Source of the DNA: Spirochaetota bacterium
Lineage (GTDB): Bacteria > Spirochaetota > Spirochaetia > Treponematales > UBA12059
Reading direction: 5' to 3'
DNA length: 64,000 nucleotides
NCBI GenBank assembly: GCA_026398615.1
Contig: JAPLSN010000014.1
Span: 62,001 to 126,000, forward strand
The position numbers and the translations under genes are program-made. Shown in pieces: positions 56,051 to 64,000 of the stretch. The notes beneath the pieces are model-generated. The model saw nothing but the letters and a program-made list of their open reading frames with translations, ran no database searches and had not been told where the DNA came from. Within the stretch, counting starts at the first letter, position 1, and each line of letters begins with the position of its first letter.

Positions 56051-56144
56051 ACGATCCCTGTTTCCGGTCGCCCCGAACGTGGCTCCCCGCGCGAACGGCG
56101 ATGCCATCCGGCGTTTCCCTGACAAAAGGAGGATGAGTACCGCC

Positions 56145-56549
56145 GTGATCAAATACCTGAAGACCATCGACGACAAGTGCGTCGGGTGCATGACCTGCAC
56201 AGCGGTCTGCTCGAAGCTCTACTTCAAGCAGGAAAACCCCGCGCGATCCGCCATCCAGGTCAACGACCTCGGCAAGGGCGCCTTCCACCTCGTCGCATGC
56301 GACCAGGAATGCCGGCTCTGCGTGCAGGAATGCCCGGTGCAGGCCGTCACCGTCACCAAGGGCGGCTTCGTCCGCGTGGACAAGAATGCATGCGTCGGTT
56401 GCCTGGCCTGCGTGGCCGTGTGCCCGATCGGCGCCATGCGCTACTACCCCGGCGAAAAGGCCCCCTTCAAGTGCGTCGCCTGCGGCGCCTGCGCGAAGGA
56501 ATGCCCCAAGCAGGCCCTCGAGATCACGCAGAAGGAGGAGCGCGCATGA
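56145..56549 (+). CDS. polyferredoxin with four [4Fe-4S] sites
   Basis: A 134-residue iron-sulfur protein whose sixteen cysteines fall into four clusters: CVGCMTCTAVC, CDQECRLCVQEC, CVGCLACVAVC and CVACGACAKEC. It resembles AorA, the electron-transfer subunit of bacterial tungsten aldehyde oxidoreductases. The start is uncertain: a GTG at 56145 lies 12 bases after AGGAGG, while an in-frame ATG at 56133 touches the ribosome site and is too close. Its stop overlaps the AOR start (ATGA), so the two are coupled. Confidence 0.9.
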   Translation: MIKYLKTIDDKCVGCMTCTAVCSKLYFKQENPARSAIQVNDLGKGAFHLVACDQECRLCVQECPVQAVTVTKGGFVRVDKNACVGCLACVAVCPIGAMRYYPGEKAPFKCVACGACAKECPKQALEITQKEERA

Positions 56550-58711
56550 GCGTCACCAGGAACGACTTCAAGGTCCTCTCGGAGCGCCGGTACGAAAGGA
56601 AAGCCCTCCACCGCGGCTATTCCGACCGCACTCTCCATGTCGACCTCGGCACCCGCACCGTCGAGGAACGCCCTGTCTCCGCGGACACGAAAAAACGCTT
56701 CGTCGGCGGCAAGGGCTACGGCCTCCGCCTCCTGTGGGATTCCGTGAAGCCCACGACCAGGTGGAACGACCCGGAGAACGCCATCGTCATCGCCATGGGC
56801 CCCATCTGCGGCAACGTCAATTACCCCGGCTCGGGCAAGAGTCTCGTCGTGTCGATCTCTCCGCAGACCGGCGTTCCCATTGACTCCAACGTGGGCGGCT
56901 ACTTCGGCCCCTACCTGAAATTCTCCGGCTTCGACGCTCTCGAACTCCGGGGCAAGTCCGACCGCGAGGTCATCCTTTTCATCGACGGCAACGAGAGTCT
57001 CGTCCAGGTGCTGGAAGCCCCCGCTTCCGGCCTCGAGAAGGACACACACCTCCTCGCCGAGCAGCTCACGCACGCCTTCGCGGCGAACCCCGACGAACTG
57101 CAGCAGGTGTCCGTCGTTTCCTCCGGCGCCGCCGCCGAGCACACCTGGATCGGGCTACTCAACTTCTCGCTCTACGACAGGCGGCGCAAGGGCATCCGCG
57201 TGAAGCAGGCCGGCCGCGGCGGCATCGGCACCGTGTTCCGCGACAAGCGGGTCAAGGCCCTCGTCGTCCGTTACAAGGGCATCGAGCAGGACAACAACGC
57301 GGCCGCGGACCCCGCTGCCGTCCAGCGGATCGGCCTCAAGCTCCATCGCGAGATCATCGTCAACGACGACAAGCAGTGCAAGATGCGCAAGCAGGGCACC
57401 GCCCACCTCATGGAAGTCATGAACGACTACGACCTCCTGCCGGTGAAAAACCACAAGTACGGCCAGGACCCGAGCGGCCCCGAGCTCGCCAGCTGGGTCT
57501 GGGAAAAGCTCTTCAGCCAGAACCTGCCCGACGGCTGCTGGTTCGGCTGCACCATGGCCTGCGCCCACGCGGTCGACCAGTTCCTGCTCGAAACCGGCCC
57601 GTACAAGGGCCAGAAGGTCTGCGTAGACGGCCCCGAGTACGAGACGGCCGCCGGCTGCGGCTCCAACCTCGCCGTCTGGGATCCGCACGGCATCCTCGAG
57701 ATAAACTTCTACTGCGACACCTACGGCATCGACACGATCAGCTTCGGAACCATCGCCGGCTTCCTCATGGAATGCTGGGAACTCGGGATCCTGAACAAGG
57801 AACGGACCGGCGGCATCGAGATGGAATGGGGCGACTGGAAGGCAGCCTGCGAGCTCATGCATGCGATGGCCCGCGGCGACGCGTTCGGCGTCCTGACCGG
57901 CAAGGGTGTCAAGTTCCTCGCTTCCCACTTCGCGAAGGAATTCGGCGCCGATCCCCAGCTCATGAAGGACATCGCGCTCCACGGCAAAGGCCTCGAGCAG
58001 AGCCAGTACGTCGCCAAGGAATCCCTTGCCCAGCAGGGTGGCTACTACCTGACGAACAAGGGCCCCCAGCACGACGAAGCCTGGCTCATCTTCATGGACA
58101 TGGTGAACAACCGCATCCCCACCTTCGAAAAGAAGGCGGAAGCCCTCCACTACTTCCCGATGTTCCGCACCTGGTTCGGCCTCCAGGGCCTGTGCAAGCT
58201 GCCCTGGAACGACGTCGAACCCTCGGACAACGCCAAGCACGCGGAGCCGAACAAGGTACCCGAGCACGTGGCCAATTACATCGCGCTCTACACCGCCATC
58301 ACCGGCGAGAGCCTCGACTGGGACGGCCTCATCCGGCAGAGCGAGCGGGTCTACAACTTCCAGCGTGCCTTCAACGTCCGCATGGGCAAGGGCAAGCGCG
58401 AAGATGACAAGCCGCCCTACCGCGCCATGGGTCCGATCACGGCGGCCGAATACGAATCCCGCGCAGAGCGCTACGACAAGGCTCTCAGGGAAAAGGCGGG
58501 CATCGATCCCGCGGGGAAGGCCGTCGACGAAAAGGTGAAGCTCCTCCGGAAGTTCCGAACCGAGCAGTACGAGTCCCTCATCGACGCCGTCTTCAAGCGC
58601 CGCGGCTGGACAAACGACGGCTGCCCGACGCCGGAGCATCTCGCCGACATCGGAATGGACTTGCCCGAGGTGATCGAGGTCGTGAAAGCCAGGATCTCGG
58701 GGAAGGCGTAG
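56546..58711 (+). CDS. aor: tungsten-containing aldehyde:ferredoxin oxidoreductase
   Basis: A 721-residue AOR-family enzyme. The N-terminal domain is typical (FVGGKGYGLRLLW, NVNYPGSGKS, GFDALELRGKS), and cysteines for the [4Fe-4S] cluster are in CWFGCTMAC (C331, C335, C339), with a fourth likely in GLCKLPWND. The active site holds a tungsten-bispterin cofactor and oxidises aldehydes (or reduces carboxylates) with ferredoxin. It is longer than the archaeal type (about 605) and close to bacterial AorB/BamB-like enzymes. Its position beside tungstate uptake and molybdopterin genes fits. A hairpin terminator follows. Confidence 0.94.
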   Translation: MSVTRNDFKVLSERRYERKALHRGYSDRTLHVDLGTRTVEERPVSADTKKRFVGGKGYGLRLLWDSVKPTTRWNDPENAIVIAMGPICGNVNYPGSGKSLVVSISPQTGVPIDSNVGGYFGPYLKFSGFDALELRGKSDREVILFIDGNESLVQVLEAPASGLEKDTHLLAEQLTHAFAANPDELQQVSVVSSGAAAEHTWIGLLNFSLYDRRRKGIRVKQAGRGGIGTVFRDKRVKALVVRYKGIEQDNNAAADPAAVQRIGLKLHREIIVNDDKQCKMRKQGTAHLMEVMNDYDLLPVKNHKYGQDPSGPELASWVWEKLFSQNLPDGCWFGCTMACAHAVDQFLLETGPYKGQKVCVDGPEYETAAGCGSNLAVWDPHGILEINFYCDTYGIDTISFGTIAGFLMECWELGILNKERTGGIEMEWGDWKAACELMHAMARGDAFGVLTGKGVKFLASHFAKEFGADPQLMKDIALHGKGLEQSQYVAKESLAQQGGYYLTNKGPQHDEAWLIFMDMVNNRIPTFEKKAEALHYFPMFRTWFGLQGLCKLPWNDVEPSDNAKHAEPNKVPEHVANYIALYTAITGESLDWDGLIRQSERVYNFQRAFNVRMGKGKREDDKPPYRAMGPITAAEYESRAERYDKALREKAGIDPAGKAVDEKVKLLRKFRTEQYESLIDAVFKRRGWTNDGCPTPEHLADIGMDLPEVIEVVKARISGKA

Positions 58712-58844: not shown

Positions 58845-59369
58845 TCATCGTTCTCCGAGAAGCAGTTGCCCGTGTTCCGGGAAAACCATCCGAACGAATG
58901 CAGCTGCTCCATCGATGACATCCCGCAAGCCAGTCCGGTCATGCCACAGGCCGCCATGGCGCCAATCCCGCGGATTCCCGACCTGGTTCGCTTTCACCGG
59001 GTTCTCGTCAATGTAAGCGTAAATCTCCAGGAATTCCAGAAGACATGCAACTATCCGGGAAAAAAACCTGCAACCCCAGACGTGGCCAGTCAGTTTCTTC
59101 ATCCGGTTGTAAGCCATGGCAAACACGCTCAGGATCCATTGCATGATCGAGGAAAGACTTTCACCTTTTGCAGGTCGGAGCATTAGGTGGAAATGATTTC
59201 CCATGATGCAGAAATTCTCGACCCGGAAGTTGTACTTGGCCTTGGCTCGCTTGACGACATCAAGGAACAGGTCTTTCATGAGTACGGTATCCAGGATCAT
59301 CTCCTTGCGATTGGCCCGCGCCGTCACGTGGTAGAGGGCTCCGTCCTCGAGGATTCTTCGCTTTCTCAT
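58845..59369 (-). CDS. REP-associated tyrosine transposase (RAYT, Y1_Tnp)
   Basis: A 174-residue HUH-type transposase with the paired histidines in GNHFHLMLRP and the tyrosine region AYIDENPVKAN, both hallmark RAYT motifs. RAYTs are usually single-copy domesticated enzymes that act on REP palindromes. Base composition is noticeably more AT-rich than its neighbours. The start is the ATG at 59369; upstream in-frame codons run into repeat DNA. No ribosome site is obvious. It separates the AOR operon from the tungstate operon. Confidence 0.92.
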   Translation of the reverse strand: MRKRRILEDGALYHVTARANRKEMILDTVLMKDLFLDVVKRAKAKYNFRVENFCIMGNHFHLMLRPAKGESLSSIMQWILSVFAMAYNRMKKLTGHVWGCRFFSRIVACLLEFLEIYAYIDENPVKANQVGNPRDWRHGGLWHDRTGLRDVIDGAAAFVRMVFPEHGQLLLGER

Positions 59370-59664
59370 GTAAAAAGAAACACGTCGATTTCCTTTCTTG
59401 CTTGTGTCCAGCTCCGCCCCCCCCCTGTAAGTTCGAGCTCTGTCCCTCATGGCCCGGTCCCTCATGGCCCGTCTTCAAGCTCTGTCCCCATTGTCCCCTT
59501 GAGCTCCGATCGATAGCGGGCGATCATCGCCTTGGTCAATTCCCGTCGTGCACTCATCGTCATCTCCATCTGCGCACCCCCGCATGTAGGTACGCTCGAC
59601 TAGATTTCGGTTTTGAGGCAACGGCCTTTCTTCGGCTAGGTTATTTATGAGGCAATTCGCGCGC
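59370..59664. repeat. repeat-rich gap upstream of the RAYT gene
   Basis: Contains a 15-bp tandem duplication (59442-59456 and 59457-59471, GTCCCTCATGGCCCG) and two AGCTCTGTCCC motifs (59436-59446, 59478-59488). From 59520 to 59664 I see no gene or clear signal. Confidence 0.7.
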
Positions 59665-59692
59665 TTGACAGTTTCCCCCCGCTCCCTATACG
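59665..59692 (+). promoter_or_regulatory. sigma-70 promoter of the tungstate operon
   Basis: A perfect -35 TTGACA (59665-59670), a 16-bp spacer and TATACG (59687-59692), directly before the riboswitch-like leader. Confidence 0.75.
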
Positions 59693-59699
59693 ATTATGG

Positions 59700-59820
59700 C
59701 ACTCCGAACCGTTTCGTCCTGGGGGCAGCCCTGCCTATGGCGATCGGTCGAGATCGATACCCCGTCGGGGATTGTCGATCGTGGGTCGCGCCGGAAACGG
59801 CTCGGCCTCCCGCATTTGGA
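59700..59820 (+). promoter_or_regulatory. Moco/Tuco riboswitch (MOCO RNA motif-like)
   Basis: The leader starts ACTCCGAACCGTTTC and ends GGAAACGGCTCGGCCTCCCGCA, matching the conserved outer arms I recall for the molybdenum-cofactor RNA motif. The arms pair: CCGA (59704-59707) with TCGG (59802-59805), and CCGTTTC (59709-59715) with GAAACGG (59794-59800), one mismatch between them. An internal hairpin is centred near 59765. The ribosome site AAAGGAG follows within 20 bases, so control is probably on translation. The downstream tungstate transporter and moeA/moaA genes point to a tungsten-cofactor (Tuco) sensor. The class assignment is from memory and needs a covariance-model search. Confidence 0.8.
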
Positions 59821-59832
59821 AAGGAGACCCCC

Positions 59833-60636
59833 ATGAAACGCATCTTCATCGCCACGGCGCTCGCCGCGGCACTCGTTCTCGGGCTAGCCGCACAATCGCC
59901 CGCGAATCCCCGCCTCCGCATCGCCACGACCACGAGCACCGAGCAGTCGGGCCTACTCGCCGCGATCCTCCCCGCCTTCGAGAAGGCGACTGGCTACCGT
60001 ACCGAGGTCGTCGCCGTCGGCACAGGCGCCTCGCTCAAGATCGGCGAAAAGGGCGACTGCGACGTCGTCATCGTCCACGCGCGCGCCCTCGAGGACGCCT
60101 TCATGGCGGCCGGCTTCGGTGCCGATCGCCGGGACCTCATGTACAACGACTTCATCGTGCTCGGGCCGGCCGCCGATCCCGCCGGTGTCGCGAAGACGAA
60201 GAGCGCGCTCGAAGCCTTCTCCGCGATCGCGAAGGCGCAGGCGGGGTTCGTGTCGCGCGGCGACAACTCTGGTACGCACACGAAGGAGAAGGACATCTGG
60301 AAGGCCGTCGTCATCGCCCCCGCCGGAGTCTGGTACAAGGAAGCTGGACAGGGCATGTCCCAGGTGATCCTCATGGCCGAGCAGATGGGAGCCTATACCC
60401 TCGCCGACCGCGGCACCTGGTTGGCGATGAAAGACAAGTCCTCGCTGAAGATCCTCTCGCAGGGTGACAAGCTTTACTTCAATCCGTACGGCGTCATCAC
60501 GGTGAATCCCGCCAAGTGGCCCCAGGCGAACTACGCGGGCGCGAAAGCCCTCATGGAATGGCTCACCGGCCCGACCGGCCGCGCCCTTATCGAAGGCTAC
60601 AAGATCGGCGGGGAGCAGTGCTTCTACCTCTACTGA
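59833..60636 (+). CDS. tupA: tungstate-binding periplasmic protein TupA
   Basis: A 267-residue binding protein with a signal peptide (cleavage near AAQSPAN). It has the TupA landmarks RIATTTSTEQSGLL, GTGASLKIGEKGDCDVVIVHA and SRGDNSGTHTKEKDIW, which distinguish it from molybdate (ModA) and phosphate binders. It captures tungstate for the TupBC transporter. The ATG at 59833 has a strong AAAGGAG site; longer in-frame readings cross the riboswitch and are rejected. Confidence 0.95.
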   Translation: MKRIFIATALAAALVLGLAAQSPANPRLRIATTTSTEQSGLLAAILPAFEKATGYRTEVVAVGTGASLKIGEKGDCDVVIVHARALEDAFMAAGFGADRRDLMYNDFIVLGPAADPAGVAKTKSALEAFSAIAKAQAGFVSRGDNSGTHTKEKDIWKAVVIAPAGVWYKEAGQGMSQVILMAEQMGAYTLADRGTWLAMKDKSSLKILSQGDKLYFNPYGVITVNPAKWPQANYAGAKALMEWLTGPTGRALIEGYKIGGEQCFYLY

Positions 60637-60658: not shown

Positions 60659-61330
60659 ATGCGCGAAGCTTTCGGGCTCCTCCTCTCGGGCGACCGCGAA
60701 ACCTGGCACATCGTCTGGCTTTCGGTGCGCTTCTCCCTGTTCTCCACGCTCTTCTCCGCGGCGCCGGGCATCGCGCTCGGCGCCGCCCTGGCCTCCCGCC
60801 CCTTTCGCGGGCGGCGTTTCCTTGCAGCGGCGCTCAATGCGCTCACGGCCCTTCCCACGGTGGTCGTGGGCCTCTTCGCCTACTCGCTGGTCACGCGTTC
60901 GGGTCCTCTCGGATTCACTGGTTTCCTTTTCGCGCCCGGCGGTGTCATCCTCGGCCAGTCCCTGCTCGCCCTGCCCGTCGTCGCCGCCCTGACCTACACG
61001 GGCCTCGCCCGCCTCGATCCCCGCTTCCGTGAAACGCTCGTCACCCTCGGAGCCGGCCGCGGCCGACGCTTCCTCGCCACCCTGCGCGAAGCGCGTCCCG
61101 TCCTCATCGCGGCGATCGTCGCCGCTTTCGGCCGCGTCACTGGCGAGGTCGGCGTGTCCATGATGCTCGGCGGCAACATCCGCTGGTCGACGCGGACCAT
61201 GACAACCGCGATCGCCCTCGACGCCGCCAAGGGAGATTTCGAGCGGGCCCTCTCGCTCGGCCTCGTCCTCCTCGTCCTGGCCCTCGGCGTGAACGTCGCC
61301 CTGCACGCCATCGCGCCCGATGAACGCTGA
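60659..61330 (+). CDS. tupB: tungstate ABC permease TupB
   Basis: A 223-residue permease with five or six helices and the cytoplasmic EAA-type loop (ETLVTLGAGRGRRFLATLREARP), typical of the TupB/WtpB group. ALNALTALPTVVVGLFAYSL and GRVTGEVGVSMMLGGNIR are conserved. The ATG at 60659 is 22 bases after tupA; a GTG two codons upstream is also possible. Overlaps tupC by 11 bp. Confidence 0.95.
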   Translation: MREAFGLLLSGDRETWHIVWLSVRFSLFSTLFSAAPGIALGAALASRPFRGRRFLAAALNALTALPTVVVGLFAYSLVTRSGPLGFTGFLFAPGGVILGQSLLALPVVAALTYTGLARLDPRFRETLVTLGAGRGRRFLATLREARPVLIAAIVAAFGRVTGEVGVSMMLGGNIRWSTRTMTTAIALDAAKGDFERALSLGLVLLVLALGVNVALHAIAPDER

Positions 61331-62018
61331 TCCCCGCGCAAACGCGCCGACGCCCGCCCCGACCCTCTATGCTTGCCACGGTCTGGTTCTCGGATACGGA
61401 GGTCTGCCCGTCCTGCGCGTCGATGGCTTCGCGCTCCGCGAGGGTGAGCGGCTCGCGATCGTCGGACCGAACGGGTCGGGCAAGACAACCTTCCTCAAGT
61501 CCCTGAACGGGCTCGTTTCGCCCCTCTCCGGCGAGCTCCTCTTTCGCGGAGAGGGCGTGGGATCCTCGCGCGCGCTCCGACTCGGAAGCGCCTACCTGCA
61601 CCAGTCGCCCTACCTTTTCGCGGGGACAGTATCGTACAACGCGTCATTCGCCCTCCTCGCGCGTGGCGTCCCCCGGGCGGAACGCGACGAAGCGGCGGAA
61701 CGGGCCCTCGCGCGGCTCGGCCTTTCGGGCTTCGGTCGACGCCCGAGTCGCAGGCTTTCCGGCGGAGAGGCCCAACGCGTTGCTCTCGCCCGCGTCATCG
61801 CGTCGGGAGCCCGGGTGCTCCTCCTCGATGAGCCTACCGCGAGCGCGGACGCCCCTTCCGCGGAGATCATCGCCCGCGTCCTCATCGAGGAAGCGGAATC
61901 CGGGATAACCATCGTCTTCAGCACCCACGATCGGAAGCTCGAAAGATCGATAGCGACGAGAACCCTGTCCCTGGCGGACGGGATCGCCTGCCCGGGCCCC
62001 CTCGAGGAGCATCCATGA
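61320..62018 (+). CDS. tupC: tungstate ABC ATPase TupC
   Basis: A 232-residue ABC ATPase with Walker A GPNGSGKTT, signature LSGGEAQR, Walker B VLLLDEPTAS and the switch His in STHD. It has no regulatory TOBE domain, consistent with the short TupC type. Its stop overlaps the moeA start (ATGA). Confidence 0.95.
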   Translation: MNADPRANAPTPAPTLYACHGLVLGYGGLPVLRVDGFALREGERLAIVGPNGSGKTTFLKSLNGLVSPLSGELLFRGEGVGSSRALRLGSAYLHQSPYLFAGTVSYNASFALLARGVPRAERDEAAERALARLGLSGFGRRPSRRLSGGEAQRVALARVIASGARVLLLDEPTASADAPSAEIIARVLIEEAESGITIVFSTHDRKLERSIATRTLSLADGIACPGPLEEHP

Positions 62019-63229
62019 CGGACACGCCCATCCATCCCGACGAGGCGGTCCGCCTTGTCCTCGAAGCGGTTCCCCGCGCCATGACCGAGGAGGTCCCGCT
62101 CGCCGATGCCCTCGGCCGCGCCCTTCCGGAACCGCTGCCCGCCCTCGTCGACCAGCCGCCCTTCGACAAGTCGGCGATGGACGGCTTCGCCCACGGTCCC
62201 GCGGCGACGTCCGCCGAAGCCGGTCCCTGGCGCGTCGTCGAACTGCTCGCGGCGGGCTCCGCGCCGACCCGTACCCTCGGCCCCCGGGAATGTTCGCGCA
62301 TCATGACCGGCGCGCCCCTCCCGCCGGGTGCTTCGGGCGTGCAACGCGTCGAATGGACGCGCACGGACAGCGACGGCACGGCGCTCGTCCTCTTCGAACG
62401 ATCAGAGACTGCATCGAATGTCATCCTGCGCGGCGAGAACCAGCGCGCGGGCGACACGCTTCTGGGGCCCCGCCTCCTGGAACCCCAGGACATCGGCATC
62501 CTCGCATCGTCCGGCTACGCGCGCGTTCGCGTCGCACGCCGTCCCATCGTCGGCGTGGTCTCGACGGGCGACGAAATCGTCGAACCGGGCAAGCCCCTCG
62601 GTCCGGCTTCTATCTACGATTCCAACGGCCCCCAGCTCGCCGCCCAGGCCCGCATGGCCGGCTGCGAAGTCCGTTCATACGGCATCCACCGCGACGACGA
62701 AACCGCGCTCCGGGACGTCCTCGGGAGGGCGCACGACGAGTGCGACGTCATTCTCGTTTCCGGCGGCGTCTCGATGGGCGACTTCGACCACGTGCCGAAA
62801 GCCCTCGCGGCCGTCGGATTCGCCTGCGTCTTCCACGGCCTCGCGATGCGGCCGGGCAAGCCCACTTTCTTCGGCCGTTCGGGAAAAAAGACCGCCTTCG
62901 GCCTGCCCGGGAACCCCGTTTCCACGTTCGTGAACTTCGAAGTCCTCGTGCGGGTTCATCTTTTCGCGCGCATGGGACTTTCGTATTTCCCGCGAACCGT
63001 CCGCGCCCGGCTCGCCGAGCCCCTCGCGCGGAAGGGTTTCGACCGAGTCGAATTCCTGCCCGCACGCCTCGAGACGGCAAAGGAGGGGATGCTCGTTCGT
63101 CCCCTGCGCTACCACGGATCCTCGATGCTCGCGATCCTCGCGGAGGCCGACTGCATCCTGCGCATGGAACCCGGCGCGGAACGCGTCGGGCAAGGGGAGG
63201 TCGTCGATGCTCGACTCCTGCGGTCGTGA
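62015..63229 (+). CDS. moeA: molybdopterin molybdenumtransferase MoeA
   Basis: A 404-residue MoeA. PPFDKSAMDGFA (the Asp-Ser-Ala-Met-Asp signature), IMTGAPLPPGA, VSTGDEIVEPG and SGGVSMGDFDH are all present, and the C-terminal beta domain is intact. It inserts the metal into adenylylated molybdopterin; in this cluster the metal is likely tungsten. It overlaps tupC by 4 and moaA by 23 bases. Confidence 0.96.
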   Translation: MTDTPIHPDEAVRLVLEAVPRAMTEEVPLADALGRALPEPLPALVDQPPFDKSAMDGFAHGPAATSAEAGPWRVVELLAAGSAPTRTLGPRECSRIMTGAPLPPGASGVQRVEWTRTDSDGTALVLFERSETASNVILRGENQRAGDTLLGPRLLEPQDIGILASSGYARVRVARRPIVGVVSTGDEIVEPGKPLGPASIYDSNGPQLAAQARMAGCEVRSYGIHRDDETALRDVLGRAHDECDVILVSGGVSMGDFDHVPKALAAVGFACVFHGLAMRPGKPTFFGRSGKKTAFGLPGNPVSTFVNFEVLVRVHLFARMGLSYFPRTVRARLAEPLARKGFDRVEFLPARLETAKEGMLVRPLRYHGSSMLAILAEADCILRMEPGAERVGQGEVVDARLLRS

Positions 63230-64000
63230 GATCCGCTACCTCCGCATCTCCGTCACCGACCGCTGCAATCTCCGCTGCGTCTACTGCATGCCCGTGGAAG
63301 GAGTTACCCTCCTCCGCCACGATGAGATCCTCAGTTTCGAGAAAATCGCCCTCGTCGCCCGCGCGGCGGCCGGGCTAGGCTTTCGCAAGTTCCGCCTCAC
63401 GGGGGGCGAACCCCTCGCGCGGAAAGGCCTTCCCGCTCTCGTCTCGATGCTCGCCGCCGTCCCCGGCGTCGAAACCCTCGCGATGACGACGAACGGCACC
63501 CTCCTGGAGCCGGTCGCTGCCGAACTCGCGGCGCGAGGTCTGAATTCGGTCAACGTGTCCCTCGACACCCTCGATCCCGCGCGCTACCGTGAGCTCACGC
63601 GGGGCGGGGAACTCGCCGACGCCCTCGCGGGCATCGTGTCTTCCCGCGAGGCAGGCCTCCCCGTCAAGCTCAACGTCGTCGCGCTCGAGGACTCCACCGA
63701 GAAGGAGTTTGTGGAGCTCCGGACGTACGCCGCCTCGGTCGGCGCGTCCATGCAGTTCATCGCGCGCTACCGCCTCGACGAGGAAAAGCGCGACGGCGGG
63801 GAATGGGACCGGCCCCCGCGCTGCGGCGACTGCGACCGGATCCGCCTTCTCGCGAACGGCATGCTTCGCCCCTGCCTCCACGGATCGTTCGGCGAAAAGG
63901 TCGACTTCGGCGACATCGAGGGGAGCATCCGCCGTGCCGTTGCCCGGAAGCCCGTACACGGGCACGCTTGCGCCGACCTCGAGATCGGACAGATAGGAGG
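63207..64000 (+). CDS. moaA: GTP 3',8-cyclase MoaA, shortened, runs off the window
   Basis: A radical-SAM enzyme, the first in pterin-cofactor synthesis. The N-terminal cluster motif is in DRCNLRCVYCMP, followed by RLTGGEPLAR. The second, C-terminal cluster is in RCGDCDRIRLLANGMLRPC. The segment normally between the barrel end and the second cluster (about 60 residues) is mostly missing: SMQFIARYRL goes almost directly to PPRCGDC. The reading frame is open to 64000 and ends IGQIGG, where the family normally stops, so probably only the stop codon lies beyond the edge. The ATG has AAGGGGAGG upstream. Confidence 0.92.
   Translation, partial: MLDSCGREIRYLRISVTDRCNLRCVYCMPVEGVTLLRHDEILSFEKIALVARAAAGLGFRKFRLTGGEPLARKGLPALVSMLAAVPGVETLAMTTNGTLLEPVAAELAARGLNSVNVSLDTLDPARYRELTRGGELADALAGIVSSREAGLPVKLNVVALEDSTEKEFVELRTYAASVGASMQFIARYRLDEEKRDGGEWDRPPRCGDCDRIRLLANGMLRPCLHGSFGEKVDFGDIEGSIRRAVARKPVHGHACADLEIGQIG

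What the first reader, a model, noticed from the sequence alone, without database searches (positions are those of the whole stretch)
59700..59832. Probable tungsten-cofactor riboswitch controlling tupABC-moeA-moaA
The conserved outer arms and the CTCGGCCTCCCGC end match the Moco RNA motif as I recall it, and the regulated genes are for tungstate, next to a tungsten enzyme. Tuco-sensing members are proposed but poorly tested, so this is a clean test case.
Basis: partly seen in the sequence, partly recalled or inferred. Interest (0 to 1): 0.65.

Follow-up and report, generated by a model that had tools for sequence, protein, structure and literature searches.

The report
Metal-cofactor riboswitch on tungstate uptake operon
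A genuine molybdenum/tungsten-cofactor riboswitch sits in front of a tungstate-import and cofactor-making operon in an uncultured spirochaete, and it carries the stem that was thought to mark molybdenum sensors only, which makes it a useful test of how these RNAs tell the two metals apart.

Summary
Window 59690-59842 (+) is a full-length RF01055 (Moco RNA) match: 60.6 bits against a cut-off of 36, E 4.5e-12, and the only one in a 99%-complete genome. The host is an uncultured Spirochaetota bacterium. The RNA's last helix strand contains the Shine-Dalgarno sequence of tupA, and the operon is tupABC-moeA-moaA-moaC-MOSC-mogA, so ligand-induced translational repression is the likely mechanism. The 'tungsten type' claim is only partly supported. 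The published criterion (Regulski 2008) is absence of stem P3, yet this RNA has a 7+4 bp P3. Among 147 related RNAs parsed here, 12 of 41 tup-linked ones carry P3, and P3 changes at least five times on the TupA tree. One P3-bearing relative genome (G347) has an AOR, no ModA over the cut-off, no xanthine-dehydrogenase-family and no DMSO-reductase-family enzyme. So P3 does not reliably mark molybdenum sensing in this lineage. The ligand (Tuco, Moco or both) is undecided; I favour Tuco, or both metals without discrimination, at about 0.6. It is a new member of a known kind, with a context that challenges the only published metal-specificity rule.

The parts
59665..59694 (+). predicted sigma-70-type promoter (TTGACA, 18 nt, TACGAT); transcription start inferred at about 59700-59702
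   Evidence: 10 of 12 consensus positions, 1 site found against 0.2 expected in shuffles; the start site is inference
59690..59842 (+). RF01055 Moco RNA covariance-model match, full length
   Evidence: 60.6 bits, E 4.5e-12
59702..59705 (+). P1 5' strand CUCC (pairs with 59823-59826)
   Evidence: alignment; P1 covaries over 110 distinct RNAs (pair 5: 79% paired against 43% shuffled), but in the window pairs 5 and 6 are A.A and C.C mismatches
59708..59748 (+). P2 with tetraloop-receptor region (CCUGG.../UAUGG, 5' side deviates from CCUAAG)
   Evidence: alignment; sequence
59752..59780 (+). P3 hairpin, GAUCGAU/GUCGAUC plus inner CCCC/GGGG: the stem said to mark molybdenum-type members
   Evidence: sequence
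59783..59808 (+). P4 hairpin with GAAA tetraloop (59794-59797)
   Evidence: sequence
59809..59819 (+). P5 (CC/GG) and its loop
   Evidence: alignment
59820..59826 (+). Shine-Dalgarno AAAGGAG; GGAG is the 3' strand of P1, start codon 6 nt further
   Evidence: same arrangement in other tup, P5CDH and SBP members
59833..60636 (+). tupA, tungstate-binding protein; residues matching TTTS, H59, R118, T124 and D170 of D. alaskensis TupA are conserved
   Evidence: PMC5517513. The NCBIfam TupA score of 214.7 is below its curated cut-off of 400
60659..61330 (+). tupB, permease
61320..62018 (+). tupC, ATPase
62015..63229 (+). moeA
63207..64000 (+). moaA (runs off the window; 265 aa in the contig); followed in the contig by moaC, MOSC-like ORF, mogA
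58845..59465 (-). REP-associated tyrosine transposase between AOR and tup (not part of the system)
56118..58711 (+). 4Fe-4S protein and AOR-family (tungsten) oxidoreductase, upstream neighbour without its own Moco RNA

Best explanation
A Moco/Tuco-family riboswitch of the P3-bearing architecture that represses translation of tupABC-moeA-moaA(-moaC-MOSC-mogA) when finished pterin cofactor accumulates. Ligand binding stabilises the P2-P5 core and the short P1 helix, and P1 contains the tupA Shine-Dalgarno GGAG, so ribosomes cannot start. Without cofactor P1 opens and metal import and pterin synthesis are switched on. I think the physiological ligand is the tungsten cofactor, or either cofactor without strict discrimination; P3 would then be a structural option in this lineage, not the metal selector. 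Shown: family membership, P3, SD inside P1, operon content, P3 variability at tup operons. Inferred: ligand, promoter start, direction of regulation (by analogy with E. coli moaA).
For: Full-length RF01055 hit. SD in the P1 3' strand with ATG 6 nt on, the same layout in most family tup operons and in the P5CDH and SBP members. P1 covariation over 110 distinct RNAs. The E. coli moaA member has its RBS in P1 and represses in the presence of Moco (PMC2408646). TupA binding-site residues conserved. No ModA in the genome, and all 23 family genomes have AOR genes. P3+ RNAs stand before tup in 12 of 41 tup-linked cases, with 6 changes of P3 state on the TupA tree, at least 5 forced by well-supported branches. 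G347: P3+ tup RNA, 0 PF00384, 0 PF02738, no ModA over cut-off; its weak hit is a 2-aminoethylphosphonate-type binding protein; an AOR is present.
Against: By the published rule P3 means Moco. In genomes G013, G016 and G018 the P3+ RNA is on the ydhV operon, whose E. coli homologue is described as probably a Mo enzyme, while tup, P5CDH or class-I AOR have P3- RNAs, which fits the rule. The window genome has six xanthine-dehydrogenase-family genes, so it probably uses molybdenum too. In the window P1 is only 4 bp by the model, and a competing fold is predicted.
Confidence: 0.6

Rival explanations
1. It is a strictly molybdenum-cofactor-sensing riboswitch, as P3 predicts. Tup is the cell's only oxyanion importer and also brings in molybdate, so Moco feedback on tup-moe-moa makes sense.
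For: P3 present. No ModA, yet six xanthine-dehydrogenase-family genes. A studied TupA binds molybdate with nanomolar affinity as well as tungstate with picomolar affinity (PMC5517513). P3 segregates with ydhV and against class-I AOR in several family genomes.
Against: G347 has P3 on tup but neither of the two large Mo-enzyme families tested. TupA is about 1000-fold tungstate-selective where measured. Class V AORs (ydhV type) from a Tup-containing organism preferred W (PMC13328260), so the ydhV segregation may not mean Mo.
Confidence: 0.3
2. It is an ON switch or a dual-state switch: the 5' strand of P2 can pair with the tupA start region (CCCCCAUGAAACG) when no ligand is bound, and ligand binding frees the start codon.
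For: For transcripts starting at 59698-59702 the minimum-energy fold is this competing helix, 2-4 kcal/mol better than the constrained aptamer.
Against: The pairing is not conserved: mean duplex energy -9.5 native against -8.9 for swapped partners over 31 RNAs. The SD would still lie in P1. Energies ignore tertiary contacts and ligand.
Confidence: 0.07
3. Degenerate or non-functional Moco RNA relic.
For: Two mismatches next to the P1 core and an altered tetraloop receptor (CCUGG for CCUAA).
Against: Full-length match with intact P2-P5, GAAA loop and SD at the right distance. Other functional-looking members share CCUG variants.
Confidence: 0.03

Closest known systems
Moco RNA / molybdenum cofactor riboswitch, Rfam RF01055 (E. 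coli moaA leader; Regulski et al. 2008, PMC2408646)
   Same: All helices P1-P5 including P3, GAAA tetraloop, RBS in P1, cofactor-synthesis genes downstream
   Different: Here the first genes are tupABC (tungstate), P3 is longer (7+4 bp), tetraloop receptor is CCUGG instead of CCUAA, P1 core 4 bp
Proposed Tuco (WCo) riboswitches, the P3-lacking subgroup of RF01055
   Same: Gene context: tungstate transporter, AOR genes in the genome
   Different: P3 present, the defining absence is not met
P3-bearing tup-linked Moco RNAs found here (G001-G003, G010, G265, G276, G283, G328, G347 in Spirochaetota; G416 Bacillota; G442 Chloroflexota)
   Same: Same architecture and same regulated genes
   Different: P3 sequences and lengths differ widely

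Membership tests
RF01055 Moco RNA motif | Covariance-model score over the curated cut-off | tested here: met
   60.6 bits against 36
RF01055 Moco RNA motif | P4 GNRA tetraloop and P2 receptor | tested here: met
   GAAA at 59794-59797; receptor 3' part UAUGG intact, 5' part CCUGG deviates
RF01055 Moco RNA motif | Upstream of Moco/Tuco genes with RBS in P1 or a terminator | tested here: met
   tup-moe-moa operon, SD in the P1 3' strand, no terminator-like site
RF01055 Moco RNA motif | Gene control that depends on cofactor synthesis | not testable with these tools
   needs a reporter assay
Tuco-type (P3-lacking) subgroup | No P3 stem | tested here: not met
   7+4 bp P3 at 59752-59780
Tuco-type (P3-lacking) subgroup | Linked to W-transport or W-enzyme genes | tested here: met
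   tupABC downstream, AOR in the genome
Moco-type (P3-bearing) subgroup | P3 stem present | tested here: met
Moco-type (P3-bearing) subgroup | Linked only to MPT/Moco synthesis or Mo-enzyme genes | tested here: not met
   first regulated genes are tungstate transporter genes
Moco- or Tuco-type | Ligand identity | not testable with these tools
   no binding or reporter data

The most novel reading that the evidence does not exclude
P3-bearing Moco RNAs in Spirochaetota (and some other tup-bearing bacteria) are tungsten-cofactor riboswitches, so the 2008 rule that P3 marks molybdenum and its absence marks tungsten is not a general specificity code, and the real discriminator lies elsewhere in the RNA or the RNA does not discriminate.
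Probability: 0.5. Interest if true: 0.62.

Novelty: new member of a known kind. Interest (0 to 1): 0.42.

Why it matters
The only published handle on Mo/W specificity in this riboswitch class is presence or absence of P3, and recent reviews list tungsten-cofactor riboswitches citing that 2008 paper. Orthologous tup operons that differ in P3, including one genome with no detected member of the two main Mo-enzyme families, give natural pairs with which the rule can be tested directly. If P3 does not set the metal, the catalogue of tungsten-sensing riboswitches has to be redrawn.

Tried and rejected
P2-strand/start-codon alternative helix as a conserved expression platform: strong in the window (-19.0 kcal/mol), but no better than swapped partners across 31 RNAs. 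AOR adjacency as evidence for tungsten: weak, because a transposase lies between and in most family genomes AOR and tup hits are on other contigs or far apart. ModA absence as an explanation of P3 state: ModA is missing in P3+ and P3- family genomes alike, so it does not separate them; outside the family it is mixed. Xanthine-dehydrogenase content as a separator inside the family: present in all 23. Core-nucleotide inspection of P3+ against P3- RNAs (5' end, P2 start, 3' end) showed no obvious discriminating base; this was by eye, not a statistical test. The automatic P3 parser misread six RNAs, which I corrected by hand.

Full report
1. The observation. A scan of the whole window against Rfam gives a single hit above gathering, RF01055 at 59690-59842 (+), 60.6 bits, E 4.5e-12, all 135 model positions. 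No second copy exists in the 3.38 Mb, 99%-complete assembly. Chance is excluded.

2. The host. The window genome is therefore an uncultured Spirochaetota bacterium of the same family.

3. The anatomy. P1 CUCC (59702-59705) pairs with GGAG (59823-59826), which is the tupA Shine-Dalgarno; the ATG is at 59833. P2 with a tetraloop receptor spans 59708-59748, P3 59752-59780 (7 bp plus 4 bp), P4 with GAAA 59783-59808, P5 59809-59819. A sigma-70-like promoter (TTGACA-18-TACGAT, 59665-59694) puts the inferred start at the edge of P1. There is no terminator-like site. P1 covaries across 110 distinct relatives, most clearly at its fifth pair (79% paired against 43% in shuffles); in the window pairs 5 and 6 are mismatches, so P1 is short, as expected of a helix that needs ligand.

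4. The genes. TupA (closest solved structure 3lr1, annotated as a tungstate-binding protein), TupB, ATPase, MoeA, MoaA, then in the contig moaC, a MOSC-like ORF and mogA. TupA keeps the TTTS, His, Arg118, Thr124 and Asp170 positions of the D. alaskensis protein, which binds tungstate at 6 pM and molybdate at 6 nM. The upstream AOR and its 4Fe-4S partner are separated by a transposase.

5. The rule being tested. Regulski et al. 2008 reported that P3-lacking Moco RNAs go with tungsten genes and that P3-bearing ones are exclusively associated with molybdenum; deleting P3 from the E. coli RNA abolished control without switching the metal. I found no later test of the rule in the held papers.

6. 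Comparative test. RF01055 hits were collected from 23 family genomes, 393 Spirochaetota genomes and 50 tupA-bearing genomes, most from other groups. I parsed 147 of these RNAs for P3 and for downstream genes (six P3 calls corrected by hand). tup-linked: 12 P3+, 29 P3-. Class-I AOR: 0 P3+, 12 P3-. ydhY/ydhV operons (class V AOR): 10 P3+, 3 P3-. Formate dehydrogenase: 0 and 13. L-glutamate semialdehyde dehydrogenase: 0 and 9. moa/moe: 2 and 15. mod: 0 and 3. The last set was chosen for having TupA, so these counts are not an unbiased census. Rfam alignments confirm P3 in the seven non-family P3+ tup RNAs, G347 included. On a tree of 37 TupA proteins P3 changes 6 times, at least 5 forced by well-supported branches. 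Long branches make some placements unsure, but repeated change is robust.

7. What the comparison says about the metal. Inside some family genomes the pattern fits the old rule: P3 on ydhV, no P3 on tup or AOR. But E. coli YdhV is thought to be a Mo enzyme in a bacterium without Tup, whereas a class V enzyme from a Tup-containing bacterium preferred W (PMC13328260), and nearly all these spirochaetes have Tup and no ModA. The best counterexample is G347 (98% complete): a P3+ RNA on tup, an AOR fragment (L336), no PF02738 and no PF00384 protein, and its weak ModA hit is a phosphonate-type binding protein. PF00174 enzymes were not searched there. The window genome itself has no ModA, two PF00384 hits (one is a probable selenocysteine formate dehydrogenase with an in-frame TGA), six PF02738 proteins and two AOR-family hits, so it probably uses both metals and cannot decide the question.

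8. Verdict. Member of RF01055: yes. Member of the proposed P3-lacking Tuco subgroup: no, its defining feature fails. Works like a cofactor-sensing OFF switch on metal uptake: very likely. Tungsten, or either metal, as ligand: about 0.6 overall; strictly molybdenum: about 0.3. The interest is in the failing specificity rule, not in the element itself.

Noticed in passing
L043:5011-6651, L046:5186-6814, L048:4808-6445 and five more family genomes: P3-lacking Moco RNAs directly before an NAD-type L-glutamate gamma-semialdehyde dehydrogenase (TIGR01236, 712-728 bits in the two tested), with the SD in P1: a possible switch to a tungsten-free aldehyde dehydrogenase when AOR cofactor is scarce.
   Followed up: partly
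L038, L044, L049, L031, L034, L035, L041: Moco RNAs with P3 before ydhY-ydhV-ydhW (class V AOR), where the start codon lies about 35-65 nt after P1 and has its own SD, in several cases inside a potential hairpin: a different expression platform.
   Followed up: partly
L011:1619-3097, L037:12-1547, G017, G019, G363, G384, G387: P3-lacking Moco RNAs before a solute-binding protein (PF01547, MalE-like) with an unidentified extra N-terminal domain.
   Followed up: no
L219 (G183), G218, G239, G227, G092, G072: Moco RNAs before what look like NiFe-hydrogenase genes, and elsewhere before TonB-receptor or FecCD-type (MolBCA-like) transporter genes; one of the latter (G251, L231) has P3. Assigned by eye from the translations.
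   Followed up: no
L053:5940-7214 (G000 contig C22): Formate dehydrogenase with an in-frame TGA at CARL-TGA-HSS, a likely selenocysteine, in a cluster with NuoE/NuoF-like sequence.
   Followed up: no
window 58845-59465: REP-associated tyrosine transposase inserted between the AOR gene and the tup operon.
   Followed up: no
family tup RNAs G012, G014, G022 (L006, L008, L020): P3-lacking tup RNAs that instead carry an extra insert of tens of bases in the P5 loop.
   Followed up: no
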